Shown piece after piece: positions 35,522 through 42,677 of a stretch of 64,000 nt of DNA. The translations under genes were made by a program, and so were the position numbers. Position 1 is the stretch's first letter, and the number at the start of each line of letters is the position of its first letter. This DNA is from Chryseobacterium formosense (GTDB lineage: Bacteria > Bacteroidota > Bacteroidia > Flavobacteriales > Weeksellaceae): contig NZ_FPAP01000001.1 in NCBI RefSeq assembly GCF_900116415.1, forward strand, positions 1,054,001 through 1,118,000, written 5' to 3'. Below the pieces are notes generated by a model. It saw only the letters and a list, made by a program, of their open reading frames with translations. It did no database searches and was not told the DNA's origin.

Positions 35522-36481
35522 ATGAAGGTTTTAGCTAACGACGGAATTTCAAAAGCCGGAGAAATTACTTTAAAAGAAGCCGGAATAGAGGTGCTCGACA
35601 ACAGGGTTGCTCAGGATCATGTTGCCAGTTTCATCAATGAAAATAATGTTGATGTTCTATTGGTAAGAAGTGCTACAAAGGTTAGGAAAGATCTGATTGA
35701 TGCTTGTCCGAATCTTAAAATCGTCGGAAGAGGCGGCATAGGAATGGATAATATTGATGTAGATTATGCGATAGATAAAGGAATTTATATCATCAATACA
35801 CCAACTGCTTCATCAAAGTCTGTAGCAGAATTGGTTTTTGCACATTTCTTTTCTTTAGCCAGATTTTTGCATGAATCAAACAGATTGATGCCATTGGAAG
35901 GAGAAACCCATTTCGATGCGATGAAAAAATCGTTCAGCAAAGCGTATGAACTTTCAGGGAAAACGTTGGGCGTGATCGGTTTCGGAAGTATTGGTCAGGA
36001 AGTCGTAAAAATGGGGATTTCTTTAGGAATGAAAGTGAAAGTTCTGACAAGAAAACCAAGAACAGAAACATTAACTTTAGAATTCTTCGATGGTCAAAAA
36101 GCCAATTTTGAAATCACATCTACCAACAATACGGATGATTTTTTAAAAGATGCTGAATTTATAAGTATTAATACTCCGCAAACCAGCGAATACATCATTG
36201 ATACGCCACAGTTTGAAAAAATGAAAGACGGTGTTTATATCGTAAATACAGCAAGAGGCGGTGTCATTAATGAAGTGACTTTACTGGATTTTATAGAATC
36301 CGGAAAAGTTGCAGGAGCAGCACTTGATGTTTTTGAAAATGAGCCTAAACCGGAGCTTATATTGTTGATGAATCCGAACCTGTCTCTTACACCACATTTA
36401 GGAGGAAATACGGTAGATGCACAAGAAAAAATCGGTGTAGAGCTTGCCCAACAAATTATTGAAATTAAAAAGAAACTATAA
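35522..36481 (+). CDS. serA: D-3-phosphoglycerate dehydrogenase (short type)
   Basis: The protein has 319 residues. GRGGIGMDNIDVDYA, the NAD-binding VIGFGSIGQEV, NTARGGVINE and the catalytic His in TPHLGGNT identify a D-isomer 2-hydroxyacid dehydrogenase. Position right after serC makes it 3-phosphoglycerate dehydrogenase. It lacks the C-terminal ACT domain of the E. coli enzyme, so serine feedback through ACT is not expected. This short form is complete, not truncated. Confidence 0.9.
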   Translation: MKVLANDGISKAGEITLKEAGIEVLDNRVAQDHVASFINENNVDVLLVRSATKVRKDLIDACPNLKIVGRGGIGMDNIDVDYAIDKGIYIINTPTASSKSVAELVFAHFFSLARFLHESNRLMPLEGETHFDAMKKSFSKAYELSGKTLGVIGFGSIGQEVVKMGISLGMKVKVLTRKPRTETLTLEFFDGQKANFEITSTNNTDDFLKDAEFISINTPQTSEYIIDTPQFEKMKDGVYIVNTARGGVINEVTLLDFIESGKVAGAALDVFENEPKPELILLMNPNLSLTPHLGGNTVDAQEKIGVELAQQIIEIKKKL

Positions 36482-36488
36482 ACTATAT

Positions 36489-37733
36489 ATGCCAGTTTTT
36501 AAACCTTTCCGCGGAATCAGACCTCATAAAGATCATGAGTCTACATTTCCTACACATCCTTTAGATAATTTCACCCAGGCTGAAATTGCTGAAAAAGCGC
36601 AAAAAGAGAAAACTTACATCAATATGATTAAACCTTATGTTGTAAGCAAATCTAAAGATGTCGACAGGAATCTGAGGAAAATTCGTTCTACGTTTGAAGA
36701 GCTTCTTGAAGAAAATGTTTTGGTTCAGGATAGTTCAGCTTATTATCTTTACGAGCAGATTTACCCGAATAAGCAGGTTTTCAGGGGACTTTTAGGTCTT
36801 GCAAGCATTGAGGATTTCTGGGCAGGAAAAATCAAGAGACATGAAAGTACCATTCCTGAAAGAAAAGAAAAGCTGGCGCATTATCTTGATAAAGTAAATC
36901 TTCAGGCAGAACCTGTTTTGCTAACTTATCAATCAAATTCAAAAATTGAATTATTGATGAATCATGAGGAGAAAAATGTTCCGATCTTCAATCACGTTGA
37001 TACGATCGGCATCAGACATAAAATCTGGAGAATTGATAACCGTTTGAAATTACAGCAGTTCAAGGAAGTGATAGACCAGATCGATTCTTTCTACATCGCT
37101 GATGGTCACCATAGAATAGGTTCCACAGCATTACACGCCAAACGTTTAAAAGATAAAAACAAAAGGCATAACGGAACAGAGGCATACAATTTCGTTTATA
37201 GCTTTATTGTTTCTAACCAATCTATCAAAATTCACGATTACAACAGAATTGTGAAAAGCATCGGTGATCTTACAACGGAAGAATTCCTGAATAGAATTGA
37301 AAAATACTTTTTAATCCACGAAAAAGGAGAAACACCTTACTACCCTTCTCAGAAATTCCATATTTCGATGTATCTGGATGGTAAATTCTATTCTCTTCAC
37401 GTAAAACACGATCTTCGTTCCCAGGAAATGTCTTTAGACAATTTAGACCACCATCTTTTAGATAAATATATTGTAAAAGATATTCTGAATATTGAAGATT
37501 CTGACAGCTCTGATGAGATTTCCTACATCAAGGGAACTTCCAATATTGAAGGAATCAATTTATTAAAAGAAAAGGTAGACAGCGGAGAAGGAAAAGTAGG
37601 TTTCGGAATTTATCCTATAAGCTTTAATGATATGATTAAAATATCTGATTTAAAGCTGAGTATGCCTCCGAAATGCACATTCATTGAGCCAAAGCTGGTT
37701 ACTGCATTATTAATGTACGATATGAAACAATAA
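36489..37733 (+). CDS. DUF1015 family protein
   Basis: The protein has 414 residues from the ATG at 36489, 7 nt after serA (a longer frame would overlap serA and lacks similarity). MPVFKPFRGIRP and the central IADGHHRIGSTALHA are hallmarks of DUF1015, a cytosolic family with a DGHHR motif like that of ParB/Srx-type nucleases or kinases. Members are often encoded beside serA/serC, so a link with serine metabolism such as serine kinase activity is plausible. I infer that from neighbourhood only. Confidence 0.85.
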   Translation: MPVFKPFRGIRPHKDHESTFPTHPLDNFTQAEIAEKAQKEKTYINMIKPYVVSKSKDVDRNLRKIRSTFEELLEENVLVQDSSAYYLYEQIYPNKQVFRGLLGLASIEDFWAGKIKRHESTIPERKEKLAHYLDKVNLQAEPVLLTYQSNSKIELLMNHEEKNVPIFNHVDTIGIRHKIWRIDNRLKLQQFKEVIDQIDSFYIADGHHRIGSTALHAKRLKDKNKRHNGTEAYNFVYSFIVSNQSIKIHDYNRIVKSIGDLTTEEFLNRIEKYFLIHEKGETPYYPSQKFHISMYLDGKFYSLHVKHDLRSQEMSLDNLDHHLLDKYIVKDILNIEDSDSSDEISYIKGTSNIEGINLLKEKVDSGEGKVGFGIYPISFNDMIKISDLKLSMPPKCTFIEPKLVTALLMYDMKQ

Positions 37734-37785: not shown

Positions 37786-39186
37786 ATGAAAAAAATATTA
37801 CTTATCATACTTCCACTCTTTTTGAGTGGATTTTTATTTTCTCAGAAAAAAGCTCCGGTGAAAAAACCGAAAGTAATTCCTAAATTCAACTATCATGAAG
37901 AATTTAAGAAAATCTCTGATGAAATTTTTCTTCATGGAACAGCGTACGATAATCTTGGTGAATTAACCAAAGGAATCGGATCGCGATTCAGTGCTACACC
38001 GGGCTACGCTAAAGCAACCGAATGGGCCGAAAAAAATCTCCAAGAAGCAGGAGCTGAAAATATATGGAAACAGGAAGTAAAAGTTCCGGTTTGGATCAGA
38101 GGAAAAGAATCTTTGCAGATCAAAACTTCTTCAGGCGATTGGAAATCTATTAAAATGCTTTCATTCGGGAATTCTGAAGGAACAAAGGGAAAAGATTTAA
38201 TCGCTGATATTCTTTTGGTAAATGATGTTCAGGAGCTTGTAAACCTGAGAACCGCAGACGTAAAAGATAAAATCATTTTTGTAAACTATCCGATTGATCC
38301 TACCATTATCAATACCGTAGATTCTTATATGATTGCTGCAAAATCTAAACTTATTTCGGCTTCCGTGATTGGACAGAAAGGAGCAAAAGCTTTAATTATA
38401 AGATCATTAACAACCGCTTCGGACGACATTCCGCACGCAAAACAGGTTTATTATGAACCTGAAGACAAAACAAGAATTCCGGCAATGACCATTGGAGTCC
38501 GTTCTGCAGATGAGCTTGAAAAACTGCTGAAGAAAACACCGGTTAAGGCTAAAATCAACATGTCTGCCGAATCAAAGGGCGAAACCATTAATCATAATAT
38601 TATCGGCGAAATTCCAGGTAAAAAAGATTCAAAAGTGATTGTTCTGGGTGCGCAGCTGGATTCTTGGGATTTTGCTGAAGGCGCTCATGACGACGGAACC
38701 GGAGTTGTACAGTGTATGGAAGTTCTAAGAACGTTTAAAGCTTTAGGTTATGATAATAACCATACGCTAAGAATTGTGCTTTATGCCAACAGTGAAAACG
38801 GTGGAATGGGTCGTGAAACCTATGCTTTGCAGGCAAAAAAGAAAGAAGAAAAGCACATTTTTGCATTGGGAACCGATGCAGGAGGTTATTCTCCACGAGG
38901 TTTTTCATTGGATATGTCTCCACAAAGAAGAAAGCTGATGTTCGAATGGAAAAATTATTTTTTACCTTATGGAATTTATGATTTCGACCAGACTTATGCC
39001 ATTCAGGATATTGCACCGTTGAAAAAACTAGATGTTCCGTTGGCTGAAATGGTCGTTGATACTCAAAGATATTTTGATTATCATCACTCCGAAAAAGATA
39101 CCTTCGATAAGGTCAACAAAAGAGAATTACTTCTCGGAGCAGTTGCCATGACCCAGCTTATTTTTATGATTGATAAAAACTGGTAG
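37786..39186 (+). CDS. M28-family peptidase-like protein, probably inactive paralogue
   Basis: The protein has 466 residues with a signal peptide (SGFLFSQ). The N-terminal part and PA-like insert are followed by an M28 domain from about 270. Compared with the paralogue encoded 900 nt downstream, the first zinc ligand His is Gln290 (VLGAQLDSWD) and the general-base Glu is Ser336 (YANSENGG). The bridging Asp in AHDDG, the second Glu (337), Asp in GTDAGG and the C-terminal His in DYHHSEKDT remain. Proteolysis is therefore unlikely, and a binding or regulatory role is possible. The frame is intact, so it is not a decaying gene. Confidence 0.82.
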   Translation: MKKILLIILPLFLSGFLFSQKKAPVKKPKVIPKFNYHEEFKKISDEIFLHGTAYDNLGELTKGIGSRFSATPGYAKATEWAEKNLQEAGAENIWKQEVKVPVWIRGKESLQIKTSSGDWKSIKMLSFGNSEGTKGKDLIADILLVNDVQELVNLRTADVKDKIIFVNYPIDPTIINTVDSYMIAAKSKLISASVIGQKGAKALIIRSLTTASDDIPHAKQVYYEPEDKTRIPAMTIGVRSADELEKLLKKTPVKAKINMSAESKGETINHNIIGEIPGKKDSKVIVLGAQLDSWDFAEGAHDDGTGVVQCMEVLRTFKALGYDNNHTLRIVLYANSENGGMGRETYALQAKKKEEKHIFALGTDAGGYSPRGFSLDMSPQRRKLMFEWKNYFLPYGIYDFDQTYAIQDIAPLKKLDVPLAEMVVDTQRYFDYHHSEKDTFDKVNKRELLLGAVAMTQLIFMIDKNW

Positions 39187-39214
39187 ACCTTTAAATTTAA
39201 TTTATAAAAAACTA

Positions 39215-39625
39215 ATGAGTATTAACAAAACTCTTTCAGAAGAAAATACACAACCTGTTCATCCGAATTACAAAAAATCTGCCGAACTCCTTTATATCTC
39301 AGGATTTTTAGGCATTGGCAACCTGATCTGGAAATATGATACTTTAGAAAATGAACTGCAAATTTTCATAGCAATTATTGTTCTGGCATTTGGTTTCGTG
39401 CTTGCGTATGTCACCAGTAAAGGGATTGAATGGTTTAAATATATTTTACTTGCTCTTTTCGCATTCGGTCTTATCAGTATTCCGTTTATTATTTCGGATA
39501 TTTTAAATGAGCCTGTGGTCGGAATTATTAATATCGTACAAACGATTCTTCAAATATATGCACTGGTATTATTATTTAAAATTCCAAAAACTATAAACCC
39601 CAACCAATCTGATCAGAAAAATTAA
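39215..39625 (+). CDS. Small membrane protein with four predicted helices
   Basis: The protein has 136 residues from the ATG at 39215 (upstream codons overlap the peptidase gene and are not convincing). A polar 25-residue N-terminus is followed by about four hydrophobic segments (GFLGIGNLIW, FIAIIVLAFGFVLAYV, YILLALFAFGLISIPFII, GIINIVQTILQIYALVLLF). Family not recognised. It lies between two peptidase paralogues and 1 nt from the next gene, so it is probably in the same operon. Confidence 0.65.
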   Translation: MSINKTLSEENTQPVHPNYKKSAELLYISGFLGIGNLIWKYDTLENELQIFIAIIVLAFGFVLAYVTSKGIEWFKYILLALFAFGLISIPFIISDILNEPVVGIINIVQTILQIYALVLLFKIPKTINPNQSDQKN

Positions 39626-39626
39626 T

Positions 39627-40091
39627 ATGGAAATCAAACAATTAAATTTAAACCCGGAACAGATCAATAACGATAAAGTAAAAAATCTGTACGATCAGAT
39701 GCAGCAATTGATTGAAAAACTTAATATTAAAAAGCTTCCATCAGAAATTGTACAATTTATCAATCAACAGATTGAAGATATTAATTCAACAACTCTGACA
39801 GGTTTTCAGCTTTATAAATTTCTAAAAAAAATACAGACTGCTATTATCAAAAAACTAGAAGCTGATCATAAAATAGTTCCTAAAAATTATTACAGAAACC
39901 TTTGGACAGCCGTCGGAATGTCGGCTTTCGGATTGCCTTTAGGTGTAGTTTTCGGTTTGAGCATGGGAAATATTGGTTTAATGGCATTGGGTTTACCCAT
40001 TGGTTTGGCAGTTGGTGTTGGAGTAGGAACTTCAATGGACAAAAAAGCTTTGGCAGAAGGAAGACAAATCGATATGGAATTAAAATTTTAA
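39627..40091 (+). CDS. Hypothetical protein with glycine-rich hydrophobic hairpin
   Basis: The protein has 154 residues. The first 95 are charged and helical. The C-terminal part has a small Gly/Leu-rich double segment (AVGMSAFGLPLGVVFGLSMG and LMALGLPIGLAVGVGVG) that may insert in the membrane as a hairpin. No homologue recognised. It starts 1 nt after the membrane protein gene and ends 19 nt before the active M28 gene. Confidence 0.65.
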   Translation: MEIKQLNLNPEQINNDKVKNLYDQMQQLIEKLNIKKLPSEIVQFINQQIEDINSTTLTGFQLYKFLKKIQTAIIKKLEADHKIVPKNYYRNLWTAVGMSAFGLPLGVVFGLSMGNIGLMALGLPIGLAVGVGVGTSMDKKALAEGRQIDMELKF

Positions 40092-40110
40092 TGAAATCAC
40101 AGAAAATTCA

Positions 40111-41469
40111 ATGAAAAATATAATTTCAACCGCTATCCTATTCTTCGGTTTCACTGCTTTCGGACAGACTAAAGAAGATTCAATTCAATTCAGCAGAATT
40201 TCTATTGAAATTTTAAATAAAGGAAAGTCGTACAACGAATTAAGAGATTTAACTAAAAACATAGGTCATCGACTAAGCGGCTCAGAGGCTTACGAAAAAT
40301 CGGTAAAATGGGCCGAACAAAAATTAAAAGAAGCCGGAGCCGATAAAGTGTGGCTTCAGGAAGTCATGATTCCGGTTTGGGAACGAGGAAAAGAATCTTT
40401 AAAAATAAAAGCCGGAAACGGAAAATGGATTTCTCTGAAAATGCTTTCTTTAGGCAATTCTGAAGGCACAAAAGGAAAAGATATTTCAGGAGATATTATC
40501 ATGGTGAAATCTTTAGCGGAATACAACAAACTTACTCCTGATCAGGTAAAAGATAAGATTGTTTTCTTCAATTATCCTTTCAGTCAGTCTTACGTTCAGA
40601 CTTTTCATGCCTACAGCGATGCAGCTGTTTATCGCTCTACTGCTGCATCATTAACGTCAAAAAAAGGTGGGAAATTTGCGATTGTACGATCACTTTCGTC
40701 TGCATTTGATGATGTTCCGCACACAGGAGCGATGCGTTACGATAAAGATATTGAAAAAATCCCTGCCGTTGCCATCGGAAATACTACTGCAGATGAACTG
40801 GAAAGTCTTTTAAAATCACAGAAAATTATCGCTAAACTCAATTCCAACTGTGGTATGAAAGGTGAGAAACTCTCCCACTCTGTTATCGGGGAAATCACAG
40901 GTCACAAAGATAGAAGTGTGATTGTTGTAGGCGGACATTTAGATTCATGGGATGTAGGCGAAGGAGCTCATGACGACGGAGCAGGAATTGTACAGAGCAT
41001 CGAAGTTTTGAGAACTTTTAAAAATTTAGGGATTAAAAATAATCACACGATAAGAGTCGTCTGTTTTGCCAATGAAGAAAACGGTGTAAAAGGCGGTCAG
41101 CAATACGGAAAAATAGTAAAAGATAGCAACGAAAAGCACCTTTTTGCCTTAGAATCTGACGCGGGAGGATTTTCACCACGAGGAATTGCTCTGGAAATGG
41201 ATGAGGCTAAAATCAATCAGATCAAAAGCTGGTCTTCCTTATTTTTACCTTACGGAGCTTATGATTTTGGAGGAAGATATTCAGGAACCGACATATATCC
41301 TTTGAAAGATATGGGAGTTCCTACCGCAGAGCTGGCTCCGGATTCTCAGAGGTATTTTGATATTCACCACACCGAAGAAGATACTTTTGAAAAAGTAAAC
41401 CGCAGAGAATTGTTGTTGGGAGCAACGATCATGACGCAGATGATTTATATGATTGATAAAAACTGGTAA
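40111..41469 (+). CDS. M28-family zinc aminopeptidase, secreted
   Basis: The protein has 452 residues with a signal peptide (FTAFGQ). All M28 site residues are present: His276 in VGGHLDSWD, Asp288 in AHDDGAG, Glu322-Glu323 in ANEENG, Asp in ESDAGG and His in IHHTEEDT. It should remove N-terminal amino acids or cut small peptides with two zinc ions in the periplasm or outside. It forms an operon-like set with two small genes and the upstream degenerate paralogue. It ends at a hairpin. Confidence 0.92.
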   Translation: MKNIISTAILFFGFTAFGQTKEDSIQFSRISIEILNKGKSYNELRDLTKNIGHRLSGSEAYEKSVKWAEQKLKEAGADKVWLQEVMIPVWERGKESLKIKAGNGKWISLKMLSLGNSEGTKGKDISGDIIMVKSLAEYNKLTPDQVKDKIVFFNYPFSQSYVQTFHAYSDAAVYRSTAASLTSKKGGKFAIVRSLSSAFDDVPHTGAMRYDKDIEKIPAVAIGNTTADELESLLKSQKIIAKLNSNCGMKGEKLSHSVIGEITGHKDRSVIVVGGHLDSWDVGEGAHDDGAGIVQSIEVLRTFKNLGIKNNHTIRVVCFANEENGVKGGQQYGKIVKDSNEKHLFALESDAGGFSPRGIALEMDEAKINQIKSWSSLFLPYGAYDFGGRYSGTDIYPLKDMGVPTAELAPDSQRYFDIHHTEEDTFEKVNRRELLLGATIMTQMIYMIDKNW

Positions 41470-41510: not shown

Positions 41511-42677
41511 TTATTTTAAATATTCTTTTTTAGCAATAACAAAATTTAAAACTTTCCCTTCTCTTTTTATTTTAATATTGATAACATTAACATCTTTCTC
41601 AATTCGGTTCAGCAAATATGTGCAAACCGTTTCGTTGGTCAGATTTTCGAGACTTATGTGATTGATGCTTAAAATCTCATCATCAAATTTTAAAGGAAAA
41701 TCTTTATCATTAAATAATAAAACCACTTTCGCTTTATTGTCGATAAATCGATATCCAAAACCAAATGATTCTAGTTTAGGCTCATCTTCTTTAATTTGAT
41801 GAAGGTAGATCTTACTATTTTTCCAATCCAGAATATAACTAAATTTTTTGAGAAATTCATTTCCCAGCAAGCTTGTAGATCCGGTAACGATAAGCTGGTT
41901 GCCGAATTTCTTTTGATCGATCATAATTTCGCCTGTCTTGAAATGATATGAAACCTGTGGTTTTCCTGCTCCGAAAGCACCTATAGAAGCAATTCCGTAC
42001 GTTTCAACAAACTTCACATTACCTTTTTTCGGATCGAAATATTTATCTAAGATTTTCATGGAACCTGTAAAGCCGGTATCAAAAGTCATCTCTATTTTTT
42101 TATCTAAAATTTTAGCTTCAATGATAGGTGTTTTCTGCATTTTGGGATCAAAAGAAAATATGGTTTCGTACCCTTCGATCGAGAAATTGGTAAGATTTTG
42201 GGTTGCTTCCAGATTATTTTCAGAATAATTGATTCTCCAGAAAAGCTTTGCCATTTGATTGGCTCCGATAATTCCGTCGATTTTTATACAGCCGAATTCT
42301 GTCCCTTGCAAATCCATCACAACTGTCCCGATATTTTTGAAGATGATATTATCAATTTTCATTTCAGGGATTTCGGTAAAAATCTGTTTTTGCTTATTTT
42401 TCTGTGAATCTGAAACTTTGCTGGTATGTTTTTCTTTCAGTTTTAATTGATTAAAAATTGCGAAAGAAATAACTGTAGGTGCTCCTGTGTCAAACAAAAA
42501 CTGATACATTTTACCATCTATTTCTACTTTTACAAGAGGTAATTCATATTCAAAATTCAAATTAACTTTTTCCACAGGATTTTTTAATACTGCTTCTCCA
42601 GTTTCAAAAAATTTCTTTCCTTGAGCAGAAATTGTAATGGTAAGAAATACGTAAGCAAAAAGTGAAATTTTCTTCAT
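41511..42677 (-). CDS. Secreted retropepsin-like aspartyl protease with PDZ-like end
   Basis: The protein has 388 residues with a signal peptide (TITISAQ). Two DTG active-site motifs, Asp63 (FDTGAPT) and Asp200 (FDTGFTGS), belong to two pepsin-like lobes within one chain. LLGNEFLKKFSYILDW matches the conserved end of the family. Residues about 300-385 resemble a PDZ module (DDEILSINHISLENLT). Such two-lobed aspartyl proteases with PDZ domains are common in Bacteroidota but mostly uncharacterised. It is monocistronic and convergent with the M28 operon. Confidence 0.82.
   Translation of the reverse strand: MKKISLFAYVFLTITISAQGKKFFETGEAVLKNPVEKVNLNFEYELPLVKVEIDGKMYQFLFDTGAPTVISFAIFNQLKLKEKHTSKVSDSQKNKQKQIFTEIPEMKIDNIIFKNIGTVVMDLQGTEFGCIKIDGIIGANQMAKLFWRINYSENNLEATQNLTNFSIEGYETIFSFDPKMQKTPIIEAKILDKKIEMTFDTGFTGSMKILDKYFDPKKGNVKFVETYGIASIGAFGAGKPQVSYHFKTGEIMIDQKKFGNQLIVTGSTSLLGNEFLKKFSYILDWKNSKIYLHQIKEDEPKLESFGFGYRFIDNKAKVVLLFNDKDFPLKFDDEILSINHISLENLTNETVCTYLLNRIEKDVNVINIKIKREGKVLNFVIAKKEYLK

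What the first reader, a model, noticed from the sequence alone, without database searches (positions are those of the whole stretch)
37786..41469. Pair of M28 peptidases, one likely inactive
The two genes share order and motifs, but the upstream copy has zinc ligand His to Gln290 and general base Glu to Ser336, while the downstream copy has all residues. Both frames and signal peptides are intact, so the dead copy seems to be kept by selection, perhaps as a binding partner or regulator. Two small genes lie between them.
Basis: partly seen in the sequence, partly recalled or inferred. Interest (0 to 1): 0.6.

Follow-up and report, generated by a model that had tools for sequence, protein, structure and literature searches.

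The report
Conserved dead-looking twin of M28 peptidase
Next to a normal zinc peptidase, Chryseobacterium bacteria keep a sister gene whose cutting machinery appears to have been lost once, long ago, and which has since been held fixed by selection even where the normal enzyme was lost, so it probably does a different job.

Summary
The upstream gene (UP, 37786-39186, 466 aa) carries Gln290 and Ser336 where the downstream copy (DN, 40111-41469, 452 aa) has the zinc ligand His276 and general base Glu322. This is not a local accident. All 161 distinct full-length UP-clade proteins read have Gln and Ser, and the 278 other homologues read have His and Glu. The UP clade is one branch; its sister group, positional orthologues in other genera behind the same DUF1015 gene, still has His and Glu. 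UP is under strong purifying selection (median dN/dS 0.044, DN 0.046). Codons 290 and 336 changed at least 24 and 14 times, only synonymously. Six of 34 columns invariant in the active-type proteins have switched in UP, while the residues of one zinc site stayed. UP is kept in 13 of 148 genomes without an intact DN, so the 'partner or regulator of DN' reading is weak, and the two small genes between them are rarely present. Best reading: a genus-wide non-peptidase M28 homologue with one metal site and a rebuilt pocket, acting by binding. Loss of activity and metal content are inferred, not shown.

The parts
37786..39186 (+). UP: M28 homologue lacking the site-1 zinc His and the general-base Glu, 466 aa, secreted or periplasmic by its N-terminus
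   Evidence: open frame; Pfam PF04389 72.5 bits; full-length orthologues with the same residues read in 145 of 148 genus genomes
38653..38655 (+). codon 290, CAG Gln, in place of the zinc-ligand His
   Evidence: Gln in 161 of 161 UP-clade proteins, His in 278 of 278 others
38791..38793 (+). codon 336, AGT Ser, in place of the general-base Glu
   Evidence: Ser in 161 of 161, Glu in 278 of 278 others; at least 14 synonymous and 0 amino-acid changes on the tree
38689..38691 (+). Asp302, bridging zinc ligand, kept
   Evidence: 161 of 161
38794..38796 (+). Glu337, zinc ligand, kept
   Evidence: 161 of 161
38875..38877 (+). Asp364, ligand of the second zinc in active enzymes, kept
   Evidence: 161 of 161
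39082..39084 (+). His433, zinc ligand, kept
   Evidence: 160 of 161; Asn in a second UP copy of one genome, L089
38347..38349 (+). Lys188, in place of an Arg invariant in active-type homologues
   Evidence: Lys in 157 of 161; Arg in 278 of 278 others
38437..38442 (+). Ala218-Lys219, in place of an invariant Thr-Gly
   Evidence: 161 of 161 against 278 of 278
38869..38871 (+). Gly362, in place of an invariant Glu two residues before Asp364
   Evidence: 160 of 161 against 278 of 278
40111..41469 (+). DN: M28 homologue with all active-site residues (His276, Asp288, Glu322, Glu323, Asp350, His419)
36444..37733 (+). DUF1015 gene, conserved neighbour just upstream of UP; serA and serC lie before it
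   Evidence: Pfam 250.6 bits; found on the same strand in 235 of 238 UP loci (redundant), 231 within 400 bases, median gap 61
39215..39625 (+). small membrane-type frame between the pair, not conserved
   Evidence: no Pfam match; found in 6 of 197 loci
39627..40091 (+). small glycine-rich frame between the pair, patchy
   Evidence: no Pfam match; found in 20 of 197 loci

Best explanation
UP is a conserved non-peptidase homologue of the M28 family. Shown: a gene of this type with a full active site stands behind DUF1015 in sister genera, so the ancestor most likely had it. In the one clade that holds the Chryseobacterium genomes, the zinc-ligand His and the general-base Glu are gone, four more columns that are invariant in active-type homologues have changed too, and the new residues are held by strong selection. 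Inferred: it no longer hydrolyses peptides, because the base that activates water is gone. It probably still holds one metal ion through Asp302, Glu337 and His433. Loss of the two Glu at 336 and 362 and gain of Lys219 would make the pocket less acidic, so it most likely binds a ligand (a peptide end, amino acid or other small molecule) in the periplasm or outside the cell, as a binding or sensing protein, independently of DN.
For: Fixation: 161 of 161 against 278 of 278. One origin and an active sister group: in a subset of 49, the 12 Gln/Ser rows form one clade (100), 6 active UP-type rows from other genera are its sister (96), and the two join at 100, apart from the DN clade; in the full tree 12 distinct active proteins join the 161 with support 1.0. 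Selection: dN/dS 0.044; at least 24 and 14 synonymous but no amino-acid changes at codons 290 and 336, against neutral chances of at most about 3e-11 and 9e-9 over four transition biases. Pocket rebuilt, not decayed: 6 of the 34 columns invariant in the 278 switched, each to one new residue (97.5-100%), while Asp302, Glu337 and Asp364 stayed at 100% and His433 at 160 of 161. Whole fold kept in the model: best solved match 3iib, Z 42.0, rmsd 3.0 over 426 residues. Independence: UP kept without an intact DN in 13 genomes.
Against: No activity, metal or ligand data exist here. Changing the general base does not always kill M28 enzymes: a PDB title lists a functional Glu151-to-His mutant of the Aeromonas enzyme (2anp), and in human GCPII Glu424Gln lowers Vmax only 8-fold, although Glu424Ala abolishes activity (PMC8538779, passages). 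UP is split by a frame change in one draft genome (G313), its N-terminus is altered in G120, and a second UP copy in G072 has lost His433. I could not measure distances in the model, so that the six switched residues line one pocket is inferred. The re-fixation contrast is modest: 9 of 12 changed columns against 161 of 384 less conserved ones, one-sided p 0.024. Binding is preferred over new chemistry by judgement only.
Confidence: 0.5

Rival explanations
1. UP is a partner or regulator of DN: an inactive subunit that pairs with the active enzyme, or a decoy for its substrates.
For: Same strand and close by, with one or two DN copies behind UP in 167 of 197 loci (redundant, some cut); 53% identical. 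A bacterial precedent with degenerate metal ligands is Csd2 with Csd1 of Helicobacter pylori (PMC5053510, passages).
Against: 13 of 148 genomes have UP without an intact DN, at least 7 changes on the UP tree; the 10 close pairs among them show dN/dS median 0.031 (0.014-0.143) against 0.053 for 2455 pairs with DN and 0.063 for 97 mixed pairs. UP could still pair with itself or with other M28 proteins.
Confidence: 0.15
2. UP is still an enzyme, with one zinc and new residues doing a different reaction, as glutaminyl cyclases do on the same fold.
For: The ligands of the one-zinc site are kept, Asp364 too, and new residues are fixed. Cyclases of this fold use one zinc (PMC7948796, PMC7522609, passages).
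Against: Glutaminyl-peptide cyclotransferase is reported to keep the active-site Glu (PMC4000134, passage), which UP lacks. None of the 23 switched columns listed gained an acidic residue.
Confidence: 0.25
3. UP keeps low peptidase activity; Gln or a water network replaces the lost groups and the change tunes specificity.
For: Asp292, next to the lost His, and the bridging Asp302 are invariant; some general-base mutants stay active.
Against: His and Glu are present in 278 of 278 other homologues read; Ser is a poor base (general chemistry); both positions are changed in every UP-clade protein read.
Confidence: 0.1

Closest known systems
Shewanella amazonensis Peptidase M28, PDB 3iib (nearest solved relative)
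   Same: whole-length similarity and fold: phmmer E 2.7e-51, Foldseek TM 0.80/0.84, Z 42.0 over 426 residues
   Different: keeps the His and Glu that UP lacks (alignment)
DN and the active UP-type orthologues of sister genera (L044-L052, L114-L121, L127)
   Same: 53% (DN) and 57-66% (UP-type) identity to UP; the nine named UP-type loci L114-L121 and L127 lie behind DUF1015 too
   Different: all have His, Asp, Glu, Glu, Asp, His; UP has Gln and Ser plus four more switched invariant columns
CA_C2195 of Clostridium acetobutylicum (DUF4910), a bacterial M28-like non-peptidase
   Same: one zinc, catalytic residues replaced and mostly conserved as replaced in 82 homologues (PMC4000134, passages)
   Different: different replaced residues, extra domains, about 17% identity to M28 enzymes; no link to UP was tested
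Transferrin receptor 1, inactive M28 homologue
   Same: same fold, best Z 28.7; binding function without catalysis (PMC4000134, passage)
   Different: human, about 15% identity, larger protein
Type II glutaminyl cyclases, one-zinc M28 fold
   Same: one-zinc site at the positions UP keeps, with Asp for the Glu ligand in bacteroidal ones; fold match Z about 25
   Different: reported to keep the active-site Glu; 12-18% identity in the rows listed

Membership tests
M28 peptidase family (by descent) | sequence match over the family cut-off | tested here: met
   PF04389 72.5 bits, cut-off 21.3
M28 peptidase family (by descent) | fold | tested here: met
   model pLDDT 83.0; 3iib Z 42.0, rmsd 3.0, 426 aligned
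active two-zinc M28 peptidase | five zinc ligands | tested here: not met
   His at site 1 is Gln in 161 of 161; the other four kept, His433 in 160
active two-zinc M28 peptidase | general-base Glu | tested here: not met
   Ser in 161 of 161
active two-zinc M28 peptidase | peptidase activity | not testable with these tools
   needs purified protein
non-peptidase M28 homologue (pseudoenzyme) | conserved loss of catalytic residues | tested here: met
non-peptidase M28 homologue (pseudoenzyme) | kept by selection | tested here: met
   dN/dS 0.044; synonymous-only change at both codons
non-peptidase M28 homologue (pseudoenzyme) | absence of peptidase activity | not testable with these tools
   inferred from residues only
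type II glutaminyl cyclase | active-site Glu beside the one-zinc site | tested here: not met
   one-zinc ligands kept, the Glu is Ser; that cyclases keep it is from PMC4000134
obligate partner of DN | occurs only with DN | tested here: not met
   13 of 148 genomes with UP and without intact DN

The most novel reading that the evidence does not exclude
UP founds a new functional class on the M28 fold: a one-metal protein with a rebuilt pocket (Lys188, Ala218-Lys219, Gln290, Ser336, Gly362, Ile406) that recognises or converts a ligand its peptidase ancestor did not, in a role nearly every Chryseobacterium keeps even after losing the active enzyme.
Probability: 0.3. Interest if true: 0.62.

Novelty: new member of a known kind. 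Interest (0 to 1): 0.42.

Why it matters
Non-peptidase M28 homologues are known (over 550 in MEROPS by 2014, only a few characterised; PMC4000134, passage). This one is unusually well placed for study: a single loss on one branch, active positional orthologues in sister genera, an active paralogue usually next door, and natural genomes that have lost that paralogue. It lets one test how a peptidase is turned into something else, and it warns that annotation as 'M28 peptidase' in Chryseobacterium is probably wrong for this gene. My paper searches on it (two returned nothing) listed no paper whose title or shown abstract describes it; the library lacks most subscription journals, and only listings were seen for most papers.

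Tried and rejected
Chance or sequencing error: rejected by fixation in 161 distinct proteins.

Decaying gene: rejected by dN/dS and by the codon test.

Regained residues in other Chryseobacterium: the His/Glu cases are outside the clade.

Small genes as conserved partners: rejected.

Distances in the model: no coordinates are laid in the Python box, so pocket geometry was not measured. The second structure job was not used.

Genus genomes without a full-length read: G063 and G124 (75% and 73% complete) and G120. In one search two order-level rows (L220, L221) carried the label HE rather than OUT, the outgroup was not one side of a branch, and FastTree and quick IQ-TREE, not the careful method, were used. 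The DN set for dN/dS was 208 proteins over 76% identical to DN.

DN-loss count: 13 genomes judged by best score, G061 among them with DN in two frames; G063 was not counted; G103, whose DN match is in pieces, was counted as having it.

A mend after checking: I had taken L127 for a DN-type gene; one search shows it is UP-type, so two of the 11 named His/Glu loci (L153, L189) are not.

Papers that led nowhere: searches returned none; two searches gave nothing that bears on UP.

Full report
What is there. The window holds serC, serA, a DUF1015 gene, UP (37786-39186), two small frames and DN (40111-41469), all on the + strand (serC named from its sequence by recall, serA with Pfam support). UP and DN are whole-length M28 homologues, 53% identical. 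UP has Gln290 and Ser336; DN has His276 and Glu322 at the same columns. By the recalled numbering of the Aeromonas enzyme these are His97 and Glu151. The ligands of the other zinc (Asp302, Glu337, His433) and Asp364 are present in UP. A modelling paper on M28-type sites states that one zinc commonly sits at sites 2, 3 and 5, and a second at 1, 2 and 4 (PMC7522609, passages); UP has lost site 1.

How widespread. UP was sought in 148 genomes of the genus: 147 have a match. I read a full-length UP with Gln and Ser in 145 of 148. Of the other three, G120 shows both residues in a gene with an altered N-terminus, and G063 and G124 are 75% and 73% complete. Over all loci, 161 distinct UP-clade proteins have Gln, Asp, Ser, Glu, Asp (His433 in 160), and 278 other proteins, DN and order-level relatives included, have His, Asp, Glu, Glu, Asp, His. 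Of 80 named genome records, 69 have the Gln/Ser form and 11 the His/Glu form. A degenerate DNA pattern for the Gln motif occurred in 7 of 395 genomes across the phylum, the 7 of this genus in that sample; it needs the exact surrounding motif, so other contexts would be missed.

When it happened. With the two columns left out, the 161 form one side of a branch in FastTree (support 1.0). In a rooted subset of 49, 12 Gln/Ser rows form a clade (100), their sister is 6 active UP-type rows from other genera (96), and both join at 100, away from DN. In the full tree 12 distinct active proteins join the 161 with support 1.0. Synteny agrees: DUF1015 is found on the same strand in 235 of 238 UP loci (redundant), 231 of them within 400 bases, and before the M28 gene in all 11 named His/Glu loci; nine of those are UP-type by identity and two (L153, L189) are not. 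One sister genome carries both an active UP-type gene and a DN-type gene (L044). So duplication most likely came first, and loss of the two residues came later, on the stem of the genus.

Selection. Pairwise dN/dS has median 0.044 for UP (1188 pairs) and 0.046 for DN (939 pairs). At codon 290 at least 24 changes and at codon 336 at least 14 occurred on the tree of 145 genomes, all synonymous. If mutations were neutral, the chance of only synonymous changes is at most about 3e-11 and 9e-9 for transition biases of 1 to 8. The two substituted residues are therefore wanted as such.

Pocket. 34 columns are invariant in the 278 active-type proteins. Six changed in UP, each to one residue: Arg188 to Lys (97.5%), Thr218 to Ala, Gly219 to Lys, His290 to Gln, Glu336 to Ser, Glu362 to Gly (99.4%); in 28 the majority residue stayed. 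At the 97% level 12 of 82 columns changed, and 9 of those 12 are re-fixed, against 161 of 384 less conserved columns (one-sided p 0.024). The model (33 sequences, pLDDT 83.0) matches 3iib best.

Relation to DN. By best score, 13 near-complete genomes of 148 lack an intact DN (G035, G053, G060, G061, G067, G079, G088, G099, G102, G105, G110, G116, G143). In G061 the DN match lies in two frames. On the UP tree this needs at least 7 changes. UP in these stays constrained: 10 pairs, median 0.031, range 0.014-0.143, the two highest involving G061; pairs with DN on both sides have 0.053 (2455) and mixed pairs 0.063 (97). Many other genomes have two DN copies behind UP (81 of 197 loci, redundant, some cut). 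Against this, G120 has a UP with an altered N-terminus and two whole DN copies, and one draft genome outside the sample (G313) has UP in two pieces and two whole DN copies.

Is it inactive? Likely, not shown. Glu424Ala abolishes human GCPII activity, but Glu424Gln costs only 8-fold in Vmax (PMC8538779, passages), and a His mutant of the Aeromonas enzyme is titled functional. UP has lost a zinc ligand as well, and Ser is a weak base, so peptidase activity near that of DN is improbable.

Verdict. The idea of a partner for DN is not favoured. I read UP as an independent non-peptidase M28 homologue with a rebuilt, probably metal-bearing pocket. It is a clean new case of a known kind.

Noticed in passing
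L089:4001-5407 (G072): A second UP copy with no DUF1015 gene found in its 7.4 kb locus, with Asn at His433 as well as Gln and Ser: the one protein that has also lost a ligand of the remaining zinc site.
   Followed up: partly
L339 / L057 (G313): UP is split over two frames while two DN copies behind it are whole; draft genome, so an assembly error is possible.
   Followed up: partly
L079:2085-3436 (G061), L215:3465-4402 (G103): The DN match lies in more than one frame or in pieces while UP is whole.
   Followed up: partly
window 39215-40091: Two small frames of no Pfam family between UP and DN, the second glycine-rich; patchy across the genus, so probably later insertions.
   Followed up: partly
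window 41511-42677, - strand: Retropepsin-like aspartyl protease (Asp_protease_2) convergent with DN; related genes matched in 68 of 197 loci.
   Followed up: no
window 37843-37845: Gln20, just behind the hydrophobic N-terminus, is invariant in all 161 UP proteins; after signal cleavage it could be an N-terminal Gln, a target for glutaminyl cyclase.
   Followed up: no
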